A DNA stretch of 64,000 nucleotides from Singulisphaera sp. GP187 (GTDB lineage Bacteria; Planctomycetota; Planctomycetia; Gemmatales; Gemmataceae): assembly GCA_945905925.1 (NCBI GenBank), contig CAMDQN010000002.1:55547-119546 (forward strand). Reading direction: 5' to 3'. The stretch's first letter is position 1. The number at the start of each line of letters is the position of its first letter. The translations under genes and the position numbers were made by a program. Under the pieces are notes generated by a model that made no database searches, was not told the origin of the DNA, and was given only the letters and a program-made list of their open reading frames with translations. This document shows positions 5,672-64,000 of the stretch, piece after piece.

Positions 5672-6928
5672 ATGAGTACCAGCGTCCTCACCCTTTCCTC
5701 GTTTGCCAGCGGTCTAACGGCTGAGACCGCGTTCGACGTGCTCGCGGTCGCGCGCCAACTCATGGCCGGTGGGAAGGACGTGATCGCGCTCCAGATCGGC
5801 GACTCGCCGTTCCCGACCACTGCCAGCGCGATCAAGGCGGCGCACGCGGCCATCGACGCGGGCCTCACGCGATACTGTCCGTCGCAGGGCCTTCCAGAGT
5901 TTCGCGAGACGATCGCGAAGACCGTAAACGCAGAATTCAACATCCCCGCCACCGCCGACAACGTGGTAGTCGGTCCCGGCGCGAAGGTGTTCGAGACGTA
6001 CTTCTGCGAAGCGTTTCTCGAACCCGGCGACGCGGTGTTAGTCTTCCAACCGGCGTTCCCGACGTTCGAGCCAAACATCCTGCGGCGCGGCGCGCGCCCG
6101 GTGTACGCTCCCCTAAAGCAAGAGAACCAGTTTCGGCCGGACATCGGCGCGATCGAGAAATTCGTGAAGACCGAACCGCGTGCCCGGGCGCTGTTCCTCA
6201 ACTTCCCACACAACCCCACGGGCGGTGTCGCCACGCGCGAAGACATGAAGGCGATCGCGAACATCGTCCGCGGCACGAACGTCGCGGTGTTCAGCGACGA
6301 ACCGTATTGCCACATGGTTTGGGGTGGCAAACACCACAGCATCCTGGCCGAACCCGGAATGATCGAGCAGTGCGTGGGCGCGTACACGTTCTCGAAGAGC
6401 TACAGCATGAGTGGGTGGCGCTGTGGGTACATGGTCGCGTCACCCACAGTGGCGCAGATCGTGAGCAAGATGATCAACACGTCGCTCTCGTGCGTGCCAC
6501 CGATCGTTCAAATGGCGGGTAAGGCCGCGCTCGAACACGACGCCGCCGAACGCGATGCGGTGATGACGAAGTTCCACAAGAAGGTTGAGTTGCTGGTGAG
6601 CGAGTTGCGGAAAGTACCCGACGTGACCGTGCTGATGCCGGAGGGAACGTTCTACGTGTTCCCGAACGTCGCGCCGATCTGCGCGCGACTCGGTATCACG
6701 TCGCACGGTCTCGCGATGTACCTCTTAGAAGGGGCGGATGACGAGCGGGGTGTCGCGTGTCTGGGTGGTGAGTGCTTCGGCGCTGCGGGTCAAGGGTTCT
6801 TGCGATTCAGTTGCGCCGAGCCAGACGAGAAGCTCGTATCCGCGGTCGCGTTCTTCGCGGATGCCGTGAACCGCACGGACCGCGTGAAATCGTACCTCGA
6901 CGCGCACCCGAAGTACCGCGCGAAGTGA
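5672..6928 (+). CDS. class I/II PLP aminotransferase
   Basis: A 418-residue fold-type I aminotransferase of the aspartate/aromatic group. Visible landmarks are the RYCPSQGLPEFRE segment, the NFPHNPTGG motif that binds the substrate carboxylate and cofactor, FSDEPY, and the PLP lysine in TFSKSYSMSGWRCGY. The C-terminal FLRFSCAEP carries the conserved arginine. All catalytic landmarks are present. Substrate cannot be fixed from sequence; aspartate or a related amino acid is most likely. It is monocistronic and convergent with polX across a long palindrome that starts at the last base of its stop codon. Confidence 0.88.
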   Translation: MSTSVLTLSSFASGLTAETAFDVLAVARQLMAGGKDVIALQIGDSPFPTTASAIKAAHAAIDAGLTRYCPSQGLPEFRETIAKTVNAEFNIPATADNVVVGPGAKVFETYFCEAFLEPGDAVLVFQPAFPTFEPNILRRGARPVYAPLKQENQFRPDIGAIEKFVKTEPRARALFLNFPHNPTGGVATREDMKAIANIVRGTNVAVFSDEPYCHMVWGGKHHSILAEPGMIEQCVGAYTFSKSYSMSGWRCGYMVASPTVAQIVSKMINTSLSCVPPIVQMAGKAALEHDAAERDAVMTKFHKKVELLVSELRKVPDVTVLMPEGTFYVFPNVAPICARLGITSHGLAMYLLEGADDERGVACLGGECFGAAGQGFLRFSCAEPDEKLVSAVAFFADAVNRTDRVKSYLDAHPKYRAK

Positions 6929-7033
6929 ATCGGCTGCGCCCCTTCGGGTCGAACGCTAAACAGACAACGACACATCCTCCCAGAGAGGTGTCGTTGTCTG
7001 TTTAGCGTACGACCCGAAGGGGCGCAGCCGATT
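6928..7033. repeat. 46-base inverted repeat, TTTAGCGT class
   Basis: Arms 6928-6973 and 6988-7033 are reverse complements with a single mismatch. The arm includes AACGCTAAAC and CCCCTTCGGGTCG, which recur at 32594-32665 and as a half element at 54316-54341. It abuts both stop codons of the convergent genes and can fold as a bidirectional terminator. Confidence 0.85.
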
Positions 7034-8787
7034 TACTTCGCGCTCGCCTTCTCTTTCCGCCGCGTGAGTTCCTTCGTCACGTCGGCCAAGCCGCGAGTGT
7101 TGAACACATCATCCTTCGTCAGCCACCCGCGGCGCGCCACCTGAACCCCGAATGTGTACAGCCCGAGTTCGCCGGTGCTGTGCGCATCCGGGTTGATCAC
7201 GATCGGAATGCCCATCGCCTTCGCCTGCTTCACGTACTTCCAGTCGAGATCGAGACGCGACGGTTGCGCGTTGATCTCGATCATCTTGCCGTGCTTCGCG
7301 GCGACTTTCAGAACTTCGTCGAGGTTGATCTTGTATCCTTCGCGCTTCAAGAGAAGACGCCCGGTTGCGTGGCCTAACATCGTCACCGTCGGGTGCGCAA
7401 GCGCCTTACACACGCGCGCCGTCATATCGGCTTCAGCCATTCCGAACAGCGAGTGAACGCTCGCCACCACATACTCGAAACCGGCGAGCAGTTCGTCGTT
7501 GTAGTCGAGCGATCCGTCTTCGAGGATATCCACCTCGCTACCCTTGATGATGCGGACGCCGGTTAGGTTGGCGTTCACGCGGTCGATCTCCGCCCACTGT
7601 TTCCGCACCGCGCCCGGCGGCATCCCGCGAGCGATGGTCAGAGACTGCGAGTGATCCGCGACGCCGAAGTACTCGAAGCCGAGCCGCTTCGACGCGAGCG
7701 CCATCTCTTCCAACGACGCGGTGCCGTCGCTGTAGGTGGTGTGGTTGTGGAACACGCCGCGAATGTCGGAATCGGCCACCAGCGCGGGCAACTTCTTCGC
7801 TTCGCCGGCTTCGATCTCGCCAGTGTCCTCGCGCATCTCCGGTGGAATGAAGGGAAGGTCAAGCGCCGCGAAGATGTCTTCTTCCGTCTTGCAGGGCACC
7901 GAGCGCGTGTCGTTCGCAAGCGCGTATTCGTTAAGCGTAAGGCCGCGGTCGATCGCGCGCTGCCGCATTCGGATGTTGTGTTCCTTGCTGCCGGTGAAGT
8001 AGTGCAGCGCGAACGGGTACTGTTCATCCGTCACGACGCGGAGGTCGGCTTGCATTGTGACCTTCGCGCCGTGAACGTGCAGCGCCGCGATCACGCTCGA
8101 CTTCGTTGGCCCCTGCCCCAACACCTGCACCACTTCCGGCAGTTTCACGAACGCGTCCATGATAGGCTGCGCGTTGGTACTGCTCACGAGGATGTCGAGG
8201 TCGCCGGTCGTTTCTTTGAGGCGACGAAGACTCCCGCACACCTCGGAGCGAATCACGCCGGGAAAGCCGCGAATCTGTTCGAGGAGCGCCCAGCCCAGCG
8301 GCAACGCCATATCGATCCGCACGCGGTTCCCGATCTTGTCGATGTAGAGGATCCCTTCGAGGATCTTCGCCTGGGTCTTCGCACCGAAGCCTTTCTGCTT
8401 CGCCACTTCACCGGACTCACATGCGGCCTTCAGTTTCTCGATGGTGTCGATCTGGAGCAGGTCGTGAAGCGCCTTCACCTTCTTCGGTCCCAGACCCGGC
8501 AGGCGGAGCATCTTCACCAAGCCTTCGGGGATCGAAGCGCGAAGATCTTCGAGGTAGGGCAGTTTTCCCGTGGTCACGAGCGTGGTGATCTTCTCGCTGA
8601 GTGCTTCGCCGATCCCGCGAACCTCGGACAACTTCCCTTCGGCGACCATCTGGTTGAGGTCGCCGGGAAGTTGCTGAACGAGCCGGGCCGCGTTGTGGTA
8701 CGCGTTGGTGCGGAACGCGTTCTCGCCCTTCAGTTCGAGAAGGGTTCCGATCTCGTCGAGCGCGTCGGCAACGTCATCTTTGGACAT
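7033..8787 (-). CDS. polX: DNA polymerase/3'-5' exonuclease PolX
   Basis: A 584-residue bacterial family X polymerase for short gap filling in base excision repair. Order of domains: N-terminal helix-hairpin-helix region with LPGLGPKKVKAL, a polymerase beta-like core with the metal motif GDLDILVSS after CGSLRRLKETT, then a C-terminal PHP exonuclease domain with FHNHTTYSDG and VADHSQSL. The metal ligands of both active sites are present. The ATG at 8787 was chosen for its GAGGAGACC ribosome site; a longer frame to 8910 has no support. The gene follows the PseG-like gene on the same strand after a 129-base gap. Confidence 0.92.
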   Translation of the reverse strand: MSKDDVADALDEIGTLLELKGENAFRTNAYHNAARLVQQLPGDLNQMVAEGKLSEVRGIGEALSEKITTLVTTGKLPYLEDLRASIPEGLVKMLRLPGLGPKKVKALHDLLQIDTIEKLKAACESGEVAKQKGFGAKTQAKILEGILYIDKIGNRVRIDMALPLGWALLEQIRGFPGVIRSEVCGSLRRLKETTGDLDILVSSTNAQPIMDAFVKLPEVVQVLGQGPTKSSVIAALHVHGAKVTMQADLRVVTDEQYPFALHYFTGSKEHNIRMRQRAIDRGLTLNEYALANDTRSVPCKTEEDIFAALDLPFIPPEMREDTGEIEAGEAKKLPALVADSDIRGVFHNHTTYSDGTASLEEMALASKRLGFEYFGVADHSQSLTIARGMPPGAVRKQWAEIDRVNANLTGVRIIKGSEVDILEDGSLDYNDELLAGFEYVVASVHSLFGMAEADMTARVCKALAHPTVTMLGHATGRLLLKREGYKINLDEVLKVAAKHGKMIEINAQPSRLDLDWKYVKQAKAMGIPIVINPDAHSTGELGLYTFGVQVARRGWLTKDDVFNTRGLADVTKELTRRKEKASAK

Positions 8788-10014: not shown

Positions 10015-10526
10015 GCACAACGCTCCTGAACAACCAGCGGTTGGAAAGGTGCGCTAACGAACTCGTGCTGACTCGGGGGCCTCACGGCCACCGCTCGCCA
10101 AGAGTTGCGTTCGCGCGTTCCGGTTGGTGTGGAGTGTGCTTCCGCCTCGGACGAGCATCCATGCGCGAACGAGCCGCGCGGCGGGGGAGCCTACTTCGAC
10201 ACCTCTTCTCCGGTTGGGGTCAATTGCTGACCCCAGACGGCGCGACTTCGGGTTCCGGTCCGTTGTCGCGTCGTGTTCGGCCTTCGGGTTCCGGTCCGTT
10301 GGCCCAACGGGGCGAATCCTAGTCCGGTTTTCTCGCAACCGACAAGGCCACTTTCTTCACACGTCGTCACACTTGAAATTGAAGCCCCGCGCCCGGATTT
10401 GATTGTGCGGAAGAATCCGAATCGCGCGAAGAAATTAACCGCACAGGTCCCATGAGTCGCGCAGAATGTTCGGGACGGGAATGCCACTCGCACGCCAAAT
10501 CACGGGCGACATTCTAACGCCCATCG

Positions 10527-10544
10527 ACGTTCCACGTGGAACGT
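10527..10544. promoter_or_regulatory. parS: parS-like site 1
   Basis: The 18-base perfect palindrome ACGTTCCACGTGGAACGT closely matches the conserved bacterial parS core (GTTNCACGTGNAAC type). It sits inside a longer repeated unit starting with ATTCTAACGCCCATCG, 170-190 bases before parB. Confidence 0.85.
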
Positions 10545-10586
10545 TCCCGGACGCGGACCGCGCGGCCGACATTCTGACGTTGATCG

Positions 10587-10604
10587 ACGTTCCACGTGGA
10601 ACGT
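10587..10604. promoter_or_regulatory. parS: parS-like site 2
   Basis: Identical 18-base palindrome, 60 bases after site 1, preceded by the same ATTCT-ACG-TCG flank with a few substitutions. Confidence 0.85.
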
Positions 10605-10648
10605 ACCTCGATCCGGCGCCGCGGAGCACGTCATTCTAACGCCCGTCG

Positions 10649-10666
10649 ACGTTCCACGTGGAACGT
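10649..10666. promoter_or_regulatory. parS: parS-like site 3
   Basis: Identical 18-base palindrome, 62 bases after site 2 and about 48 bases before the parB ATG. The flank ATTCTAACGCCCGTCG repeats the flank of site 1. Confidence 0.85.
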
Positions 10667-10713
10667 ACCCCACCACGTCCCCGATTCCACTTCCCACCGC
10701 CGCAGAGGTTGCT

Positions 10714-11643
10714 ATGAAGCTGGACAACTTTTTCGCACTTGGAGACTTTCGCATGGAAACAACCACCAAAGCCCCGCCGCGTCTCGCTCGCGGGCTGAAC
10801 GCTCTCCTCGGTGATATTTCGATGCCACCCGCGGACAACGCGACCGTATCGCGGCTCCCGGTCGGGAAGATCGATTTCAACCCGTACCAGCCGCGCAAAC
10901 AATTCGACGGCGAGGAACTCGCGTCCCTCACCGCGAGCATCAAGAACCACGGTGTCCTGCAACCACTCGTCGTGCGCCTCGTGGACACCAACTATCAACT
11001 CATCGCGGGGGAGCGCCGGCTCCGCGCCGCCAAGGAAGCCGGGCTCGCGGAAGTACCAGTTCACGTTGTCGCGTTCAACGACCAGGAAGTTTTTGAAGCG
11101 GCCCTTGTCGAAAACATTCAGCGCACCGACCTGAACCCGATCGAGAAAGCGAACGGGTTCAAAGAGTACATGGACCGGTTCGGAATGACGCAGGACAAAC
11201 TCGGCTCGCGCCTCGGCCTCGACCGCACGACCGTGAGCAATCTGCTCGGGCTGCTGAACCTGCACCCCGAAGTGCAGGCCGCGGTGCGGAACGGGCAACT
11301 CACGATGGGGCACGCGAAGGTGTTGAAGGGAGTCGCGGACCTGGAGCAGCAGTACATGTTCGCCAAAGACGCGATCATGAAGAACTACTCGGTTCACGCG
11401 CTGGAGTTGCTCGTGAAGCAGCACAAACTCGCGGCGGCAGGCGCAGAACCGGTCGAAGAGCCGGCCGAAAAGAAGGAGCCCGCGGAAAAGACGGCCCACG
11501 TGAAGGGACTCGAAGACGACCTGCGCCAGCGGCTCGCGGTGAAGATCGAGATCAAGGTTAAGGCGAAGGACAAAGGTCAAATCGTGATCGGCTTCGACTC
11601 CAACGACGACTTCGAGCGCATCATTCAAGCCTTACAGAAGTGA
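10714..11643 (+). CDS. parB: chromosome partitioning protein ParB
   Basis: A 309-residue ParB/Spo0J CTP-switch protein that loads at parS and organises the origin region. The N-terminal segment PPRLARGLNALLGD is typical of ParB starts. The CTPase motifs are GERRLRA and ENIQRTDLNPIE. The helix-turn-helix is GSRLGLDRTTVSNLL, followed by a linker and a C-terminal dimerisation region. An alternative ATG at 10753, closer to the conserved N-terminus, also has a GGAG site. The three parS sites directly upstream suggest autoregulation. No parA lies adjacent or anywhere in this window, which is unusual. A classic terminator follows. Confidence 0.95.
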   Translation: MKLDNFFALGDFRMETTTKAPPRLARGLNALLGDISMPPADNATVSRLPVGKIDFNPYQPRKQFDGEELASLTASIKNHGVLQPLVVRLVDTNYQLIAGERRLRAAKEAGLAEVPVHVVAFNDQEVFEAALVENIQRTDLNPIEKANGFKEYMDRFGMTQDKLGSRLGLDRTTVSNLLGLLNLHPEVQAAVRNGQLTMGHAKVLKGVADLEQQYMFAKDAIMKNYSVHALELLVKQHKLAAAGAEPVEEPAEKKEPAEKTAHVKGLEDDLRQRLAVKIEIKVKAKDKGQIVIGFDSNDDFERIIQALQK

Positions 11644-22964: not shown

Positions 22965-23056
22965 TGCTTGGTGTTTGGTATTTAGTGTTTGGGTGGCGCG
23001 ACACGAGCGCGTTGAGGTTGTCTTGAACAAAACACACAACACGAAACACCAAACGC
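22965..23056. repeat. inverted repeat, TTGGTGTTTGG class
   Basis: Left part 22965-22991 (CTTGGTGTTTGGTATTTAGT) pairs imperfectly with right part 23028-23056 (ACACGAAACACCAAACG). It fills the whole gap between the folE stop and the GTG start of the oxidoreductase, which therefore lacks a visible ribosome site. Confidence 0.65.
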
Positions 23057-23057
23057 T

Positions 23058-26000
23058 GTGTTAGACGAAAAGCAAATCACCGACGACCTCCGCGGCCCGT
23101 TCCGTGGACGGCTCCACTTCGACCGGCTCACGCGCGGCCTCTACGCCACCGACGCCAGCCCGTTCCAGATCGAACCGCACGCGGTAGCGGTCCCCGAAGA
23201 CGCGGAGAGTGTCGCAGTTCTCGTGCGCTACTGCCACGACCACGCGATTCCCATCATCGCGCGCGGCGCGGGAACCGGCCTCGCGGGCGAATCGCTCGGC
23301 CCCGGCGTCATCCTCGATCTGAGCGTTCACTTCAGGAAGGTGGTTGCAATCGGGTCGGACACGGTGACCGTGCAGCCGGGCGTGGTGCTCAACCAACTCA
23401 ACGCGGAACTCGCGAAGACCGGGCGCCGGTTCGCACCCAATCCCGCCAGCGCCGCGACCTGCACCATCGGCGGGATGATCGCGACCAACGCAAGCGGCGG
23501 CAACGCGTTCCACCACGGCTACACGCGCGACTACGTCGCGGGGCTGGAGGTGGTGTGGGATTGCGGCGAGGTTGGCTGGGTTGGAGAGAAGAACCTCTCC
23601 CCCCAACCCCCTCCCCTAAGAAGGGAGGGGGAGTCAAGCGCCACGAGTCTGGATGCGTCTGCGGCGCGCGAGGGGGTTACTCCCGCTCCCTTCTTGGGGG
23701 AGGGGGTTGGGGGAAGAGGTTCTTCTCGCACCCAAACCATCGCCCAACAAGTCACGGAACTCCTGACCAAGAACGCGGAGCGCATCGCGATCACGCGGAC
23801 GCGCACACCGTTCGACCGGTGCGCGTACCAGCTTCACGGCGTGTTGCGCGCGAACGACGTCGACCTCGCGAAGTTACTGGTCGGCAGTGAGGGCACGCTC
23901 GCGGTCGTCACGGAAGCGACGCTGCGCACGGTCCCGGTTGCGGGCGGAACGTGCCTCACGTTACTCGGCTTCCCCACGCTCGACGACGCCACTCGTGCGG
24001 GCCTGGCGCTGCGGCGATACGGTCCCGTCGCTTGCGACCTGCTCGACCGCCGGCTGCTCTCACTCACCCGCGGCGCGGGCATCCCGGATGTGGGCGCGGC
24101 GTTGTTAGTCGTGTTCGAGGGCGACACCGAACGCGAAGCGACCGAGCGCGCGTGGGGCGCGGTCGAATCGCTCCAGCGCACACACGTTCTGCGCGCGCTG
24201 GCGGAACCGACGTGCGCGCCCGAAGGCATCGCGAACATCCGCGCCATCCGCGACGCGGCCGTGTCTGGCCTCTACGCGCAGAGCGGGGCGCGCCCGGTCG
24301 CGTTCGTCGAAGACGTGGGCGTCCCTGCCGATTCGCTCCCGGAGTTCCTCACCAAAGTTCAAGACATCTTGAAGAAGTTCGAGACGAGCGGCACGTTCCT
24401 GGTTCACGCGCTCACGGGCCAAGTTCACACGCGACCGTTGCTCGATCTGAACGAACCCACCGACCGTGCGAAACTGTGGCCGCTCGCGGAGGCAGTGCAT
24501 TCACTGGCACTGGCTTTAGGCGGCACGGTCAGCACGCAACATGGAACCGGTATCGCACGGACACCGTGGGTCGAACGACAGTACGGTCCGCTCGTACCGG
24601 TGTTCCGCGAACTCAAGCGAGTCTTCGACCCGAAGGGCATGCTGAATCCCGGCAAGATCGTCGGCCCCGACCCAAGCCGCGAAGCGTGGCCCCTGCGACC
24701 ACAGGTCAGAGAACAAAAGTCAGAGAACAAAGAACCAGAAAGTCTCGTTAGCCGCAAGCCGGAGGCGAGCGCGCCCACCGGCACTCCCCTCCTCGTCTGG
24801 AGTGCCTCTTCCCCAGCGCAAGAGGTCGCAAGGTGCAACGGGTGCGGCAACTGTCGGACGCGCAACGTCCCGGATCGCATGTGTCCGAGCTTCCGCGCCA
24901 GCGGAAACGAACACGCCACGCCACGCGCGATGGCGAACATGCTCCGCGTTCTCACCGACCCGACAGCCGCGACTCCAGAAGAGGTGCGCGCAGTCGCGGA
25001 GTTGTGCGTAAACTGCAAGATGTGCCGCGACGATTGCGACGCGAAGGTGAACATTCCGAAACTGATGCTCGAAGCGAAGGCCAGACACCACGCGGAACAC
25101 GGCCTCGAGCGCGGCGACTGGATCCTCGCCCACGCCGAAGGTCTTGCCGGCATCGGCAGCAACTTCGCGCCGATGACGAACTCGCTGCTCAGGCGCCGCT
25201 CCGTGCGCTGGCTGATGGAGAAGATGTTCGGCCTCTCGCGCCAGCGCCGACTACCCACGTTCACAGTTCGTACGTTCTTCCGCCGCGCCCGGGGCGCGGG
25301 TCTCAGTCGCAAGTCGCAAGTCTTCAAGTCAACAAGTCAAATACAGTCGGACTTGGAACTTGGTGACTTGCGACTTGCGACTTCTAAAGTAGCGATCTTC
25401 GCAGACGTGTTCGCGGCGTACAACGACCCGCTCGTCGGGATGGCCGCGGTCGCGGTATTGCAGCACCACGGCATCGAGGTCTACGTCCCGCCGCGACAGG
25501 TCGGCAGCGGAAGCGCGCCGCTCGCGAAAGGCGATCTGGATTCCGCGCGCGACGCCGCGCGCCGCAACGTGCGCGTGTTCGCGGACCTCACCCGCGAGGG
25601 CTACCGCATCGTGTGCCTGGAACCGACTTCCGCACTCATGTTGAAGCAAGACTACCTCGACATCCTCGACGACCCGGACGCAGTAGCGGTCGCGGCGCAC
25701 ACGGTCGAACTCACGACATACCTCGGCGAGTTGCACGCAGCCGGGAAACTCCGCACGAACTTCCGCAATCTCGACGTGACGCTCGGGCACCACATCCCCT
25801 GTCACCTGAAGGCGCTCCGCGGGCCGACAAACTCACCGTCGTTGCTCAGCCTCATTCCAGGCGTGCGCGTACATACAATTGACGCGGGCTGCTCCGGGAT
25901 GGCGGGCACCTGGGGGCTAAAGGCCGACAACTTCGAGACATCGCTCGCGGCCGGCGCCGGGATGCTCGCGGAACTCAATCGCCCACGCGTGTTGTTCGGT

Positions 26001-26153
26001 TCGACCGAGTGCAGCGCGTGCCGAATGCAAATGGAACAGGGTAGCGGCAAGCGCACGCTTCACCCGGTGCAGTACCTCGCCTACGCTTACGGCCTGCTTC
26101 CCGAACTCGAACCGCGATTCCACCGCCCGCTCGGCGAGTTGGTGAGTGACTGA
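23058..26153 (+). CDS. FAD-linked oxidase / Fe-S oxidoreductase fusion
   Basis: A 1031-residue fusion of a GlcD-like FAD oxidase with a GlpC-like Fe-S protein, typical of D-lactate or glycolate dehydrogenases. Residues 40-170 and 240-330 form the FAD-binding domain (IIARGAGTGLAGESLGPGVI, GMIATNASGGNAFHHG), then a FAD-oxidase C domain (HALTGQVHTRPLLDL, STQHGTGI). Two 4Fe-4S motifs follow (CNGCGNC..., CVNCKMCRDDC), then two CCG-type regions (HHIPCHLKALRG, STECSACRMQ). Three foreign in-frame palindromic elements lie at about residues 176-224, 551-572 and 750-775, all between domains or in loops. The GTG start directly follows another palindrome. Confidence 0.88.
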   Translation: MLDEKQITDDLRGPFRGRLHFDRLTRGLYATDASPFQIEPHAVAVPEDAESVAVLVRYCHDHAIPIIARGAGTGLAGESLGPGVILDLSVHFRKVVAIGSDTVTVQPGVVLNQLNAELAKTGRRFAPNPASAATCTIGGMIATNASGGNAFHHGYTRDYVAGLEVVWDCGEVGWVGEKNLSPQPPPLRREGESSATSLDASAAREGVTPAPFLGEGVGGRGSSRTQTIAQQVTELLTKNAERIAITRTRTPFDRCAYQLHGVLRANDVDLAKLLVGSEGTLAVVTEATLRTVPVAGGTCLTLLGFPTLDDATRAGLALRRYGPVACDLLDRRLLSLTRGAGIPDVGAALLVVFEGDTEREATERAWGAVESLQRTHVLRALAEPTCAPEGIANIRAIRDAAVSGLYAQSGARPVAFVEDVGVPADSLPEFLTKVQDILKKFETSGTFLVHALTGQVHTRPLLDLNEPTDRAKLWPLAEAVHSLALALGGTVSTQHGTGIARTPWVERQYGPLVPVFRELKRVFDPKGMLNPGKIVGPDPSREAWPLRPQVREQKSENKEPESLVSRKPEASAPTGTPLLVWSASSPAQEVARCNGCGNCRTRNVPDRMCPSFRASGNEHATPRAMANMLRVLTDPTAATPEEVRAVAELCVNCKMCRDDCDAKVNIPKLMLEAKARHHAEHGLERGDWILAHAEGLAGIGSNFAPMTNSLLRRRSVRWLMEKMFGLSRQRRLPTFTVRTFFRRARGAGLSRKSQVFKSTSQIQSDLELGDLRLATSKVAIFADVFAAYNDPLVGMAAVAVLQHHGIEVYVPPRQVGSGSAPLAKGDLDSARDAARRNVRVFADLTREGYRIVCLEPTSALMLKQDYLDILDDPDAVAVAAHTVELTTYLGELHAAGKLRTNFRNLDVTLGHHIPCHLKALRGPTNSPSLLSLIPGVRVHTIDAGCSGMAGTWGLKADNFETSLAAGAGMLAELNRPRVLFGSTECSACRMQMEQGSGKRTLHPVQYLAYAYGLLPELEPRFHRPLGELVSD
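23586..23727. repeat. in-frame palindrome 1 in oxidoreductase
   Basis: Arms 23586-23626 and 23687-23727 match at 39 of 41 positions. The core CCCCAACCCCCTCCCC recurs at 61153-61197 and 63716-63838. Both arms and the loop are open in the coding frame and add about 50 low-complexity residues between the two halves of the FAD domain. Confidence 0.9.
24710..24771. repeat. in-frame element 2 in oxidoreductase
   Basis: A tandem copy of GTCAGAGAACAAA is followed by CCGCAAGCCGGAGGCGAGCG, the unit also seen at 8878-8898 and 40098-40117. It encodes a Glu/Lys/Ser-rich linker between the FAD-oxidase C domain and the first Fe-S motif. Confidence 0.75.
25306..25381. repeat. in-frame palindrome 3 in oxidoreductase
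   Basis: Outer arms GTCGCAAGTCGCAAGTC (25306-25322) and its exact complement (25365-25381), with imperfect pairing continuing inward (CAAGTC/GACTTG). It is read in frame, adding about 25 residues between the Fe-S region and the CCG domains. Confidence 0.9.
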
Positions 26154-31107: not shown

Positions 31108-31198
31108 CGCCACACGCACGAAACCGTCTCTCCGACATTTCGTGGAGCGCGTTCTCAGGTTATTTGCGGAACACCCATTCCGCACCGGAAGCGTTCAC

Positions 31199-61112: not shown

Positions 61113-61234
61113 GTCAAAAAAGGGCGCCGAGGTTTAGGATCGTCGGACAAACCCCCTCCCCAACCCCTCCCCTAAGAAGGGAGGGGTTGGGGAGGGGAGT
61201 CGCTGGTCCCGCAGGGGCCAGGCTCCTCGGCGCC
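61113..61234. repeat. nested inverted repeat between exbB and exbD
   Basis: The outer stem GGCGCCGAGG (61123-61132) pairs with CCTCGGCGCC (61225-61234). The inner perfect 19-base arms (61153-61171, 61179-61197) read CCCCTCCCCAACCCCTCCC. Same core as the first in-frame element of the oxidoreductase gene and as 63716-63838. It is in the middle of the operon. Confidence 0.88.
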
Positions 61235-62320: not shown

Positions 62321-62420
62321 TGAAGAGAAGAGGAGAAGGGGAGAAGGGGTGAAGGGGAGTAAGACAGAACCAAGACGCTCTTGTCTTATCACCCTTTCTC
62401 CCTTTCTCCTCTTCTCTTCA
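62321..62420. repeat. inverted repeat, GGGGAGAAGGGG class
   Basis: Arms 62321-62352 and 62389-62420 match at 30 of 32 positions (TGAAGAGAAGAGGAGAAGGG and complement). The right arm overlaps the stop codon of the toroid lipoprotein gene (62418-62420). Similar purine-rich arms occur at 13511-13575. Confidence 0.85.
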
Positions 62421-63686
62421 AGGGCGGCATCGAGCCAGCGCGAGAATCGCGTTGCTCGTCGCGACGAGGGGGTCGTTCTCGCGCACCAGTTCAATGGGGT
62501 TCGTCCAACTTCCATCTTTCGCCTGCCGCGCCGCCAGCGCGTAACTCAGTTCGGCAACCCCGTCGCGACCGTTCGGCAGCGCGAGTTTGTGTTCGCGAAA
62601 CGTTCTCGCGACGGACGCCGCGTAGTAGAAGTACACCGCGTCGCGGTTCCGCTCGTGGGCCGAGGCGTAGTCGCCGGGATGGTGGTCCGCGCGGAAGGCT
62701 CCCGTGAGCCAGTTCGCGGACGCGGCGCGGCGCTCCTTGTCGGACGGGTCGTTGCACAGCGCGAGTGCGTGAAGGCCGTCGGCGGTGGTGCTGCCGTAGG
62801 AGTGGAACACGGGCGGGTCGTCGTTGGCCTTGCCGGCCTTGTTGCGGACCGGGTCGTCGTAGATGAAGTGAAACCCGCCGTCCACGAATCCCGACCACAC
62901 GAACGGCGACTGATGCGGTTGGAGGATCGGCCAGTTCTGGCACCGGCGCACGAACACCGCGGCGGTCTTGTAAAACTCTGCGTCCGTTTCACCTACCGTC
63001 TTGAGCGCGTCGAGCGCGAACACCGTCGCGGACAGGTTCGACTCGATCAGGCTCGGCGCGAGCGTGCCAGGCTCCGGCTTCTTCGGAATGACGCGACAGT
63101 ATCCCCACCCGCCGTACTGCTTGTCTGCTTCTTTCCAGCCGAGCGCAGTCGTGAGTTGCCGCTCCTTGAGGTACTTCACCCACCCGGCGCGGTGCTTTGC
63201 GAAGTCCTTTGCAGTCGGGTGCGAGAACGCTTTCAGCGTGAGCGCCGCGGTGTAGACGGGGTAATCGAAGCCGTCCGTGGGCGGTTCGATGGTGCCGTCC
63301 GGCTTGACGAACTTCGCGAGAAACTCGCACCCCTTCTTGATCATCGCTTCAACGACCCGGTTGTGAATGTGGGCGTCGTGGGCTTCTTGTAGCGCCACGA
63401 CCGCGAGCGGCGTGAGCGCGGTGCCGTCTTTGAATGTGGCGTACACGTCCGAGCGCCACGCGCCATCGGGCGACTGCTGGTTCTGGAGGTAATCGCAACC
63501 GAGCGCGAGCGCCTGTTGCCGCGAGCGCACCTGAACCGGGCGCGGCGGGGGGATGCTGCCGTCGTCGGGCGTGGGGGGCGCAACGAGAGCCGGGGTCGGC
63601 GCTTCCACGACCGGCGGAGGGGCATCCTTGCGCGCACAACCGAGCGCGATGAAGAGGGCGAGCGCGAGAGGAAGGACGCGCGACAT
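62418..63686 (-). CDS. squalene-cyclase-like toroid lipoprotein
   Basis: A 422-residue lipoprotein with signal LPLALALFIALGC (cysteine near residue 17) and a Pro-rich linker. The mature part has prenyltransferase/squalene-oxidase-type repeats: CDYLQNQQSPDGAWRSDVYA, KFVKPDGTIEPPTDGFDYPV, KQYGGWGYCRV and LAARQAKDGSWTNPIEL. No DXDD motif, so catalysis like hopene cyclases is unlikely. It is the first gene of the ExbBD operon; the second toroid protein closes it. The two may form an envelope complex driven by the motor. Stop TGA is the edge of a palindrome. Confidence 0.75.
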   Translation of the reverse strand: MSRVLPLALALFIALGCARKDAPPPVVEAPTPALVAPPTPDDGSIPPPRPVQVRSRQQALALGCDYLQNQQSPDGAWRSDVYATFKDGTALTPLAVVALQEAHDAHIHNRVVEAMIKKGCEFLAKFVKPDGTIEPPTDGFDYPVYTAALTLKAFSHPTAKDFAKHRAGWVKYLKERQLTTALGWKEADKQYGGWGYCRVIPKKPEPGTLAPSLIESNLSATVFALDALKTVGETDAEFYKTAAVFVRRCQNWPILQPHQSPFVWSGFVDGGFHFIYDDPVRNKAGKANDDPPVFHSYGSTTADGLHALALCNDPSDKERRAASANWLTGAFRADHHPGDYASAHERNRDAVYFYYAASVARTFREHKLALPNGRDGVAELSYALAARQAKDGSWTNPIELVRENDPLVATSNAILALARCRP

Positions 63687-63715
63687 GGGAGAACCTGAAT
63701 GGGGACGAAAAGACA

Positions 63716-63838
63716 ACCTACCCCCCAACCCCCTCCCTGAAGGGAGGGGGAGCAAGACATCGGCGCTTCGCTGATGTAGAACGATGCGCCCAACTCTTGC
63801 TCCCCTTCCCTTCAGGGAGGGGGTTGGGGGGGGTAGGT
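63716..63838. repeat. palindromic element, CCCCAACCCC class
   Basis: Left ACCTACCCCCCAACCCCCTC and right GAGGGGGTTGGGGGGGGTAG halves pair, with further pairing inside (GGGGAGCAAGA/TCTTGC TCCCC). It lies upstream of the first gene of the ExbBD operon. The remaining 160 bases to the window end show nothing recognisable apart from a possible promoter for that operon. Confidence 0.85.
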
Positions 63839-64000
63839 CTTGCGAAGCTTGCGGCTGACAGTTCATGACATCTTTGGGCTTGACACGGGAAACCTTGGAA
63901 AACTCAGCGGTTTTCGTTTGGGTGGGATGCGGGTTGATGGCTGAAACTATTCGGTCGCCTGAGTCACAAACCATTCCCCACATTGCACTTGCTATGTCAA

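What the first reader, a model, noticed from the sequence alone, without database searches (positions are those of the whole stretch)
23058..26153. Three different palindromic elements inserted in frame in one gene
The FAD/Fe-S oxidoreductase contains three separate foreign segments at 23586-23727 (39/41 palindrome), 24710-24771 (direct repeat plus CGCAAGCC unit) and 25306-25381 (17-base perfect outer arms). Each belongs to a type also found in intergenic DNA here (first two directly seen elsewhere; third by structure). All keep the frame and sit between domain motifs. This resembles Rickettsia palindromic elements, which also enter genes in frame, but with several unrelated types in one gene. 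It suggests a mobile or replicating element pool that generates protein linkers.
Basis: partly seen in the sequence, partly recalled or inferred. Interest (0 to 1): 0.9.

Follow-up and report, generated by a model that had tools for sequence, protein, structure and literature searches.

The report
Repeat elements refilling three protein loops
One enzyme gene of a bacterium related to Gemmata carries three different repeat elements in frame, in three stretches predicted to be floppy loops, and in relatives of the same genus the same loops often hold unrelated repeats or none, likely because such elements insert widely and only loops like these tolerate them.

Summary
The gene at 23058-26153 encodes a 1031-aa FAD/Fe-S oxidoreductase with a 142-nt palindrome (type 1, site 1), a heptamer-spaced direct repeat plus a 24-nt REP-like unit (site 2) and a palindrome of 7-nt units (site 3). 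All belong to repeated families of this genome. In the orthologues of 19 genomes of the genus, 17 of 19 inverted repeats and 13 of 13 heptamer arrays fall in these three sites, 12% of the sequence, and the families differ between species (site 1: at least 8 changes on the gene tree). None of 29 homologues outside the genus has a repeat at the sites, though all have the loops. AlphaFold gives pLDDT below 50 at all three. HpnE and a type III polyketide synthase each show one such refilled loop at protein level. The site-2 unit flanks a RAYT-like gene on both sides; no mover was found for the others. Best reading: several repeat families insert widely and selection keeps in-frame copies in disordered loops. 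In-frame palindromes are known (Rickettsia, GTAG-REP genomes); genus-wide, multi-family refilling of the same loops is the new part.

The parts
23058..26153 (+). Host gene: 1031-aa FAD-linked oxidase / Fe-S oxidoreductase (FAD_binding_4, FAD-oxidase_C, Fer4_8/Fer4_17; CCG just under its cut-off)
23586..23634 (+). Site 1, left arm of the type-1 palindrome, holding the hairpin CCCCCTCCCCTAAGAAGGGAGGGGG
23635..23678 (+). Site 1, variable loop between the arms
23679..23727 (+). Site 1, right arm
24705..24731 (+). Site 2, direct repeat of GTCAGAGAACAAA, spacing 14 nt (two heptamers)
24748..24771 (+). Site 2, REP-like unit TTAGCCGCAAGCCGGAGGCGAGCG (family F4), one of 72 pattern matches in the genome; the same unit flanks the RAYT-like gene of locus L135
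25305..25382 (+). Site 3, palindrome of CAAGTCG heptamers (family F5)
22965..23057 (.). Upstream spacer with TTTGGTG-type heptamers in both orientations (read by eye); in the sister genome G003 the same spacer holds an unrelated palindrome

Best explanation
The three inserts are copies of three unrelated repeat families of this genome, and they most likely reached the gene because such elements insert all over the chromosome and selection keeps only in-frame copies that fall in the few loops that tolerate them. Shown: the families are multi-copy in this genome; the same three loops carry repeats of several unrelated families in relatives, with few repeats elsewhere in the gene; loops without repeats exist in relatives; the REP unit of site 2 flanks a RAYT-like gene on both sides. 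Predicted: the inserted stretches are disordered. Inferred: the site-2 unit was moved by a RAYT-like transposase; the type-1 palindromes and the heptamer palindromes arrived by a process not identified here (no target-site duplication seen for type 1, no linked enzyme); frame-breaking and structure-breaking insertions were removed by selection; the same loops are hit or overwritten again and again because they are the main permissive places in the protein.
For: Genus orthologues: 17 of 19 inverted repeats and 13 of 13 lag-7 arrays lie in the three sites, 6,741 of 57,072 nt (binomial 2e-14 and 9e-13, ignoring shared ancestry). Different families at one site: site 1 has type-1-like sequence in 10 genomes (shared 11-mers), a CCGCTTGCGGCTTCGCG-like palindrome in G010 and G015 (by eye; the 11-mer check keeps these two apart), a GCCGGGAGCGTCGGCGACCGG palindrome in G014 and a TCATTGG heptamer palindrome in G002. 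Gene tree, with states labelled by hand: at least 8, 2 and 5 changes at sites 1, 2 (REP) and 3. The pool matches the gene: the site-2 unit has 72, 29, 23, 59 and 35 matches in G000, G003, G018, G010 and G015, the five genomes that carry it at site 2 (altered in G003 and G015), and 0-5 in the other 14 (the gene's own copy is counted where it is intact). G010's and G014's site-1 elements have their best matches in their own genomes. G011 and G017 give no match to these families, no Y1_Tnp hit and no repeat in the gene. pLDDT is below 50 at 179-221, 536-574 and 755-774. Generality: 14 palindromes inside 13 of 887 called genes; HpnE and a type III PKS each have one internal site of variable fill in 121- and 120-row alignments. 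RAYT link.
Against: The RAYT-like proteins score below NCBIfam's cut-off (41.5 and 39.1 against 80 bits), and one of the two is also below Pfam's (21.9 against 23). G007 has type-1 matches but no Y1_Tnp hit, so a RAYT is not a general requirement for type 1. No empty/filled pair with clean ends was shown for the three sites, and 15 type-1 copies show no target-site duplication. Site-1 arm 1 is 44 of 45 nt identical between G000 and G003 while third codon positions in the rest of the gene are 69% identical, which fits overwriting by other copies as well as or better than an old insertion followed by decay. Shared ancestry inflates the counts; the five genomes with the site-2 unit need only 2 changes. 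The evidence for refilling in HpnE and PKS relatives is at protein level.
Confidence: 0.72

Rival explanations
1. Replacement in place: an element arrived at each loop once or a few times, and later copies were exchanged by recombination or gene conversion with the many dispersed copies, so each species' gene shows its own genome's variant.
For: Arm 1 of site 1 is 44 of 45 nt identical between G000 and G003 with all 15 third positions identical, where the rest of the gene has 69%; 10 of 869 other (overlapping) 15-codon windows do the same. G007, G009 and G012 share the right part of the site-1 fill, but G007 has a different, long palindrome on the left.
Against: Arm 2 gives no such signal: its third positions are 73% identical, about as in the rest of the gene, and arm 1 alone is 15 codons. 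Exchange between similar copies cannot explain switches between families without shared sequence, such as type-1 in G018 against the CCGCTTGCGG palindrome in its sister G010.
Confidence: 0.3
2. Local growth: heptamer arrays and palindromes at sites 2 and 3 arise in place by slippage and template switching in an already repetitive linker, without any mobile element.
For: Sites 2 and 3 are largely heptamer arrays; sister species have different units in one place, CAAGTCG in G000 and CAAGTTC in G003; the exact 19-mers are low-copy; period 7 stands out among arrays outside genes (27, against 9, 4 and 7 for periods 5, 6 and 8).
Against: Does not explain the REP unit of site 2, the type-1 palindrome of site 1, or why the same units recur at distant places in the genome.
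Confidence: 0.3
3. The elements are kept because they do something: as DNA or mRNA hairpins, or as linker peptides with a role in the enzyme.
For: Type-1 palindromes are inside genes far more often than the others (12 of 40, one of them doubtful, against 3 of 170; p=1.5e-7), and this is not explained by more open frames (2.9 against 3.1 of 6). G/C-rich hairpin motifs have been linked to triplex formation and instability in E. coli (PMC4666352: abstract, one section and passages seen); a match of that motif to type 1 was not tested.
Against: Relatives lack any repeat in the gene by the same scan (G001, G011 and G017), and the family changes often, so no particular element is needed.
Confidence: 0.08
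4. Assembly error or a decaying pseudogene.
For: The genome is a 251-contig draft, and one relative's match (G011) holds an in-frame TGA.
Against: The same sites are filled in independent assemblies, including genomes of 1-3 contigs (G007, G012, G016). The Cys motifs of the Fe-S part are invariant in all 51 rows of the alignment.
Confidence: 0.01

Closest known systems
Rickettsia palindromic elements (RPE) inside protein genes
   Same: Short palindromic repeats in frame inside conserved protein genes, also intergenic, with more than one family per genome (passages of PMC2229807; one section and passages of PMC3733652)
   Different: Other phylum; several unrelated families in one gene; the same loops carry other families in sister species; sequence relationship to RPE was not tested
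Intragenic GTAG/CGTC REPs (PMC3733652; one section and passages read)
   Same: REPs and REP dimers inside genes, sometimes two per gene (uvrA of Opitutus terrae), suggested to be neutral where they lie in flexible parts; different REPs at about one site of recB in two Xanthomonas species
   Different: Here three loops of one gene across a genus, mixing REP-like, type-1 and heptamer families, with family changes counted on a tree and two further genes at protein level
REP / RAYT (TnpA-REP) REPtrons (PMC6006769, passages read)
   Same: F4 palindromes lie on both sides of a Y1 transposase-like gene and are dispersed through the genome
   Different: HMM score below the RAYT cut-off; the unit begins GTTAGC and not GTAG or GTGG; the paper reports a class 3, found mainly in Planctomycetes, with a CnGA foot
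Heptamer STRR repeats of cyanobacteria (recalled; search listings only)
   Same: Tandem 7-nt units, mostly intergenic
   Different: Here often arranged as palindromes and found in protein loops
G/C-rich intrastrand triplex motifs (PMC4666352: abstract, one section and passages seen)
   Same: G/C-rich hairpin repeats in many copies, tied to variable places of the genome
   Different: The E. coli motif is reported as always intergenic; a sequence match to type 1 was not tested

Membership tests
REP elements mobilised by RAYT (site-2 unit, F4) | Short imperfect palindrome, many copies, mostly extragenic | tested here: met
   72 matches against 0 for the reversed pattern; all 9 palindromes of cluster F4 in the sample are intergenic
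REP elements mobilised by RAYT (site-2 unit, F4) | Copies next to a RAYT (Y1, HuH) gene | tested here: met
   L135: F4 palindromes at 1176-1265 and 1898-1971 around the ORF 1267-1881; Y1_Tnp 27.2 bits, over the cut-off of 23; NCBIfam RAYT model 41.5 bits, under its cut-off of 80
REP elements mobilised by RAYT (site-2 unit, F4) | GTAG/GTGG tetranucleotide at the hairpin foot | tested here: inconclusive
   The unit starts GTTAGC, not the canonical foot; an atypical foot is reported for a class found mainly in Planctomycetes (PMC6006769, passages)
REP elements mobilised by RAYT (type 1) | Copies next to a RAYT gene | tested here: not met
   None of the three Y1_Tnp loci of this genome (about 1.5 kb on each side) has a type-1 palindrome; G007 has type 1 but no Y1_Tnp hit
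MITE of a DDE transposon (type 1) | Target-site duplication | tested here: not met
   15 copies with both termini: 0 perfect duplications at the lengths of 4-9 nt tested, match fractions within the range of 500 shuffles; old duplications could have decayed
Rickettsia palindromic elements | In-frame insertion in conserved protein genes | tested here: met
Rickettsia palindromic elements | Sequence homology to an RPE family | not tested
   No RPE sequence was compared
Cyanobacterial STRR heptamers (definition recalled) | Tandem 7-nt units, mainly intergenic | tested here: met
   30 lag-7 arrays, 3 of them inside genes
Cyanobacterial STRR heptamers (definition recalled) | Sequence homology to a named STRR | not tested
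   No STRR sequence was compared

The most novel reading that the evidence does not exclude
In Gemmata a community of unrelated palindromic repeat families treats a small set of protein loops as shared docking ports: each species' genome repeatedly swaps its own repeats in and out of the same loops of core enzymes, so the linkers of whole protein families are exchangeable DNA cassettes whose amino-acid sequence follows the genome's current repeat pool and not the protein's own history.
Probability: 0.3. Interest if true: 0.87.

Novelty: new variant of a known kind. Interest (0 to 1): 0.72.

Why it matters
It takes the Rickettsia phenomenon to bacteria with genomes of 5-10 Mb and gives it replicates: one gene, three loops, 19 genomes, several repeat families. 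That makes an old question testable, namely whether selfish DNA is a steady source of new protein sequence, and it amounts to a natural insertion scan that marks which loops of an enzyme tolerate foreign peptides. It also warns that linker alignments in such genera can reflect the repeat pool and not descent.

Tried and rejected
Target-site duplications for type 1: looked for in 15 copies, none of 4 nt or more. More open reading frames as the reason for the type-1 excess inside genes: rejected, 2.9 against 3.1 of 6; the type-1 regular expression is strict and counts a relative of type 1, the in-gene copy at C9:39570, among the others. RAYT as mover of type 1: not supported. Exact heptamer 19-mers as markers of a genome's own pool: weak, few matches, and the CAAGTTC form is about as frequent in G000 (9) as in G003 (11). 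Concerted conversion of the arms between G000 and G003: arm 1 fits, arm 2 does not. Foldseek against the PDB placed the FAD part with D-lactate and 2-hydroxyacid dehydrogenases (the 50 best of 716 matches seen). Paper searches that name Gemmata or Planctomycetes, and wider ones, listed no report of this pattern; they cover only the open-licence library and I saw the listed papers' titles and abstract starts.
Full report
What is there. The gene at 23058-26153 encodes 1031 aa with FAD_binding_4 (40-173), FAD-oxidase_C (300-534) and a 4Fe-4S dicluster domain (589-664); a C-terminal CCG domain scores just under its cut-off. PDB relatives of the FAD part include D-lactate and 2-hydroxyglutarate dehydrogenases. 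The host genome is a 6.47-Mb draft in 251 contigs. I take the genus to be Gemmata in the GTDB sense because close homologues carry names such as Gemmata sp. SH-PL17, G. obscuriglobus and Frigoriglobus tundricola, and the site sequences of the last two are those of genus members G001 and G016.

The three inserts. Site 1 is a 142-nt palindrome at 23586-23727 with 49-nt arms, 94% complementary; the left arm holds a smaller hairpin, CCCCCTCCC-CTAAGAA-GGGAGGGGG, and the right arm a near-copy of it in reverse. Site 2 is a 13-nt direct repeat with 14-nt spacing followed by TTAGCCGCAAGCCGGAGGCGAGCG (24705-24771). Site 3 is a palindrome of CAAGTCG heptamers (25305-25382).

They belong to families of this genome. 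The site-1 hairpin core has 137 forward and 139 reverse exact matches against 0 for the reversed pattern; the two strands mostly count the same hairpins. The whole element gives 93 BLAST matches, both strands counted, with 40 of 206 candidate places scored. The site-2 unit has 72 matches against 0. In 1,258,053 sampled bases I called 887 genes with a simple 3-periodic Markov model and found 210 palindromes of score 18 or more, against 0 in a Markov control: 181 intergenic, 14 overlapping a gene end, 14 inside genes and 1 doubtful. They form 62 clusters; the largest, with 62 members, holds type 1 and some purine-rich relatives. Period-7 arrays number 30, of which 3 are inside genes.

Palindromes inside other genes. 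The 14 lie in 13 genes; only the gene in question has two at this threshold. With the doubtful copy, hosts are, besides this gene, a CobW GTPase, a type III polyketide synthase, a carboxyltransferase, a class-V aminotransferase, a P-type ATPase, a GT87 glycosyltransferase, a methyltransferase, a PSCyt2/PSD1 protein, HpnE (name from homologues) and an aldehyde dehydrogenase; three have no Pfam match. Type-1 hairpin palindromes are inside genes in 12 of 40 cases (the doubtful one included) and all others in 3 of 170 (p=1.5e-7), although others have as many open frames. Why type 1 is so well tolerated is open; its Pro/Gly/Ser-rich peptides are one guess.

The same loops in relatives. I read the three sites at DNA level in the orthologues of the 19 genomes of the genus that are held. 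At site 1, ten genomes have type-1-like sequence by shared 11-mers, in different variants and in G006 nested; in G009, G012 and G004 it no longer forms an inverted repeat of score 13. G010 and G015 have CCGCTTGCGGCTTCGCG-like palindromes (by eye; the 11-mer check keeps them apart), G014 a GCCGGGAGCGTCGGCGACCGG palindrome, G002 a TCATTGG heptamer palindrome; five have none. At site 2 there are heptamer arrays, the REP-like unit, a GGGTATC heptamer palindrome (G014) and a palindrome around CCCCAACGGGG (G004; weaker in G008). At site 3 there are palindromes or arrays of CAAGTCG, CAAGTTC, GCGGAAT and GCGGAGT units. Counted by script, 17 of 19 inverted repeats (score 13 or more) and 13 of 13 lag-7 arrays are in the three sites, which cover 6,741 of 57,072 nt. 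The two exceptions are in G005 and G014. In 29 homologues outside the genus none is at a site and one inverted repeat is elsewhere. So, in what was examined, the elements are a feature of the genus and the loops are older.

Turnover. On a tree of the gene without the sites (875 columns), with states that I labelled by hand, site 1 needs at least 8 changes of family, site 2 at least 2 for the REP unit, site 3 at least 5; some deep branches have low support (23-56). Type 1 and the CCGCTTGCGG palindrome alternate between sisters (G018 and G010) and between G015 and its nearest relatives G000 and G003. In 15 kb of synteny between G000 and G003 (83% identity) the spacer upstream of the gene holds TTTGGTG heptamers in one and an unrelated palindrome in the other, and G003 has a palindrome near window position 31158 that G000 lacks.

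The gene follows the pool. The site-2 unit is present at 23-72 matches in exactly the five genomes that carry it at site 2 (intact in G000, G010 and G018, altered in G003 and G015), and at 0-5 in the other 14. Type-1-like sequence at site 1 occurs in 10 of 14 genomes with matches to the window's element and in 0 of 5 without; these matches include the gene's own copy, and G005 has only 4. G014's and G010's site-1 elements find their best matches in G014 and G010. In some searches at most 40 candidates per genome were scored, so the counts are lower bounds. G011 and G017, with no match to these families and no Y1_Tnp hit, have no repeat in the gene. Shared ancestry explains part of this, so the p-values (8.6e-5 and 0.011) are only descriptive.

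Loops. AlphaFold2 with 51 sequences gives mean pLDDT 78.3, pTM 0.53 and, below 50, segments 179-221, 536-574 and 755-774, which contain or overlap the inserts (aa 177-223, about 550-571, 750-775); four other segments of 4 to 23 residues are also below 50. Site 1 lies between a strand and a helix after the FAD_binding_4 domain, site 2 between the FAD and Fe-S parts, site 3 before the C-terminal part. That the inserts are disordered is a prediction; low confidence can also come from poor alignment there.

Generality. For HpnE (120 homologues) and the type III PKS (119) the only internal low-occupancy run of the alignment is the insert site (HpnE has two more, at the ends); 57 of 121 and 55 of 120 rows, query included, have 8 or more residues there. 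Site lengths, with nine flanking residues on each side, run from 19 to 99 and from 20 to 114 aa, and many of the 45 printed rows in each set show type-1-like peptides in different variants, others none. This is protein-level evidence.

How it may work. Two of the three Y1_Tnp-like genes of the genome lie beside palindromes: one between two F4 palindromes, the family of site 2, and one, itself below Pfam's cut-off, beside a GTTTAGCGTTCGACCCG palindrome (family F11); the third has none. This is a REPtron-like arrangement, with the reserve that both proteins score under NCBIfam's RAYT cut-off. Among the further Y1_Tnp loci fetched from the genus several also have long palindromes near the gene, which I did not count or assign to families. 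Type 1 has no such neighbour here, no target-site duplication and exists in G007 without a Y1_Tnp hit, so its mover is unknown. For the heptamer palindromes local growth is a fair rival. Replacement of copies in place by recombination is supported by arm 1 of site 1 between G000 and G003 (44 of 45 nt, all 15 third positions, against 69% of third positions in the rest of the gene) but not by arm 2 (73% of third positions). Purifying selection as the filter is inferred.

What is known. RPEs in Rickettsia, and GTAG/CGTC REPs inside genes of several bacteria, including two insertions in one gene and different REPs at about one site of recB in two Xanthomonas species, are in print (PMC2229807, passages; PMC3733652, section on genome distribution and passages). 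Searches of the open library that name Gemmata or Planctomycetes listed no report of the present pattern. I therefore call it a new variant of a known kind.

Noticed in passing
window 10503-10678: Three 54-nt direct repeats, each with the palindrome ACGTTCCACGTGGAACGT, just upstream of a parB gene (10714-11643; ParB_N, HTH_ParB, ParB_C). The core resembles parS (recalled), so this is likely a cluster of centromere sites.
   Followed up: partly
L135:1176-1971 (G000:C29): RAYT-like gene between two F4 palindromes, a REPtron-like unit.
   Followed up: partly
L136:1099-1959 (G000:C99): Second RAYT-like gene with a 92-nt palindrome (perfect 40-nt arms) of the GTTTAGCGTTCGACCCG family directly after its stop codon.
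   Followed up: partly
window 6918-7043: 126-nt palindrome of the same GTTTAGCGTTCGACCCG family between two convergent genes, overlapping both gene ends.
   Followed up: no
L070 site 1 (G006:C576): Nested palindromes: one type-1-like palindrome seems to sit inside another (inverted-repeat score 81), inside the coding frame.
   Followed up: no
G000:C3:60562-70712: Four places with type-1 hairpins in 10 kb, two of them inside genes 1.7 kb apart (CobW GTPase, type III polyketide synthase).
   Followed up: no
G011 and G017: Small genomes (4.9 and 4.8 Mb) of the genus without Y1_Tnp hits and without any match to the repeat families tested; possible natural repeat-poor controls.
   Followed up: no
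window 61153-61197 and 63721-63831: Two more type-1-like elements; the first is intergenic, the second lies before the start I called for the gene 62418-63686 but inside the longer ORF 62418-63983.
   Followed up: no
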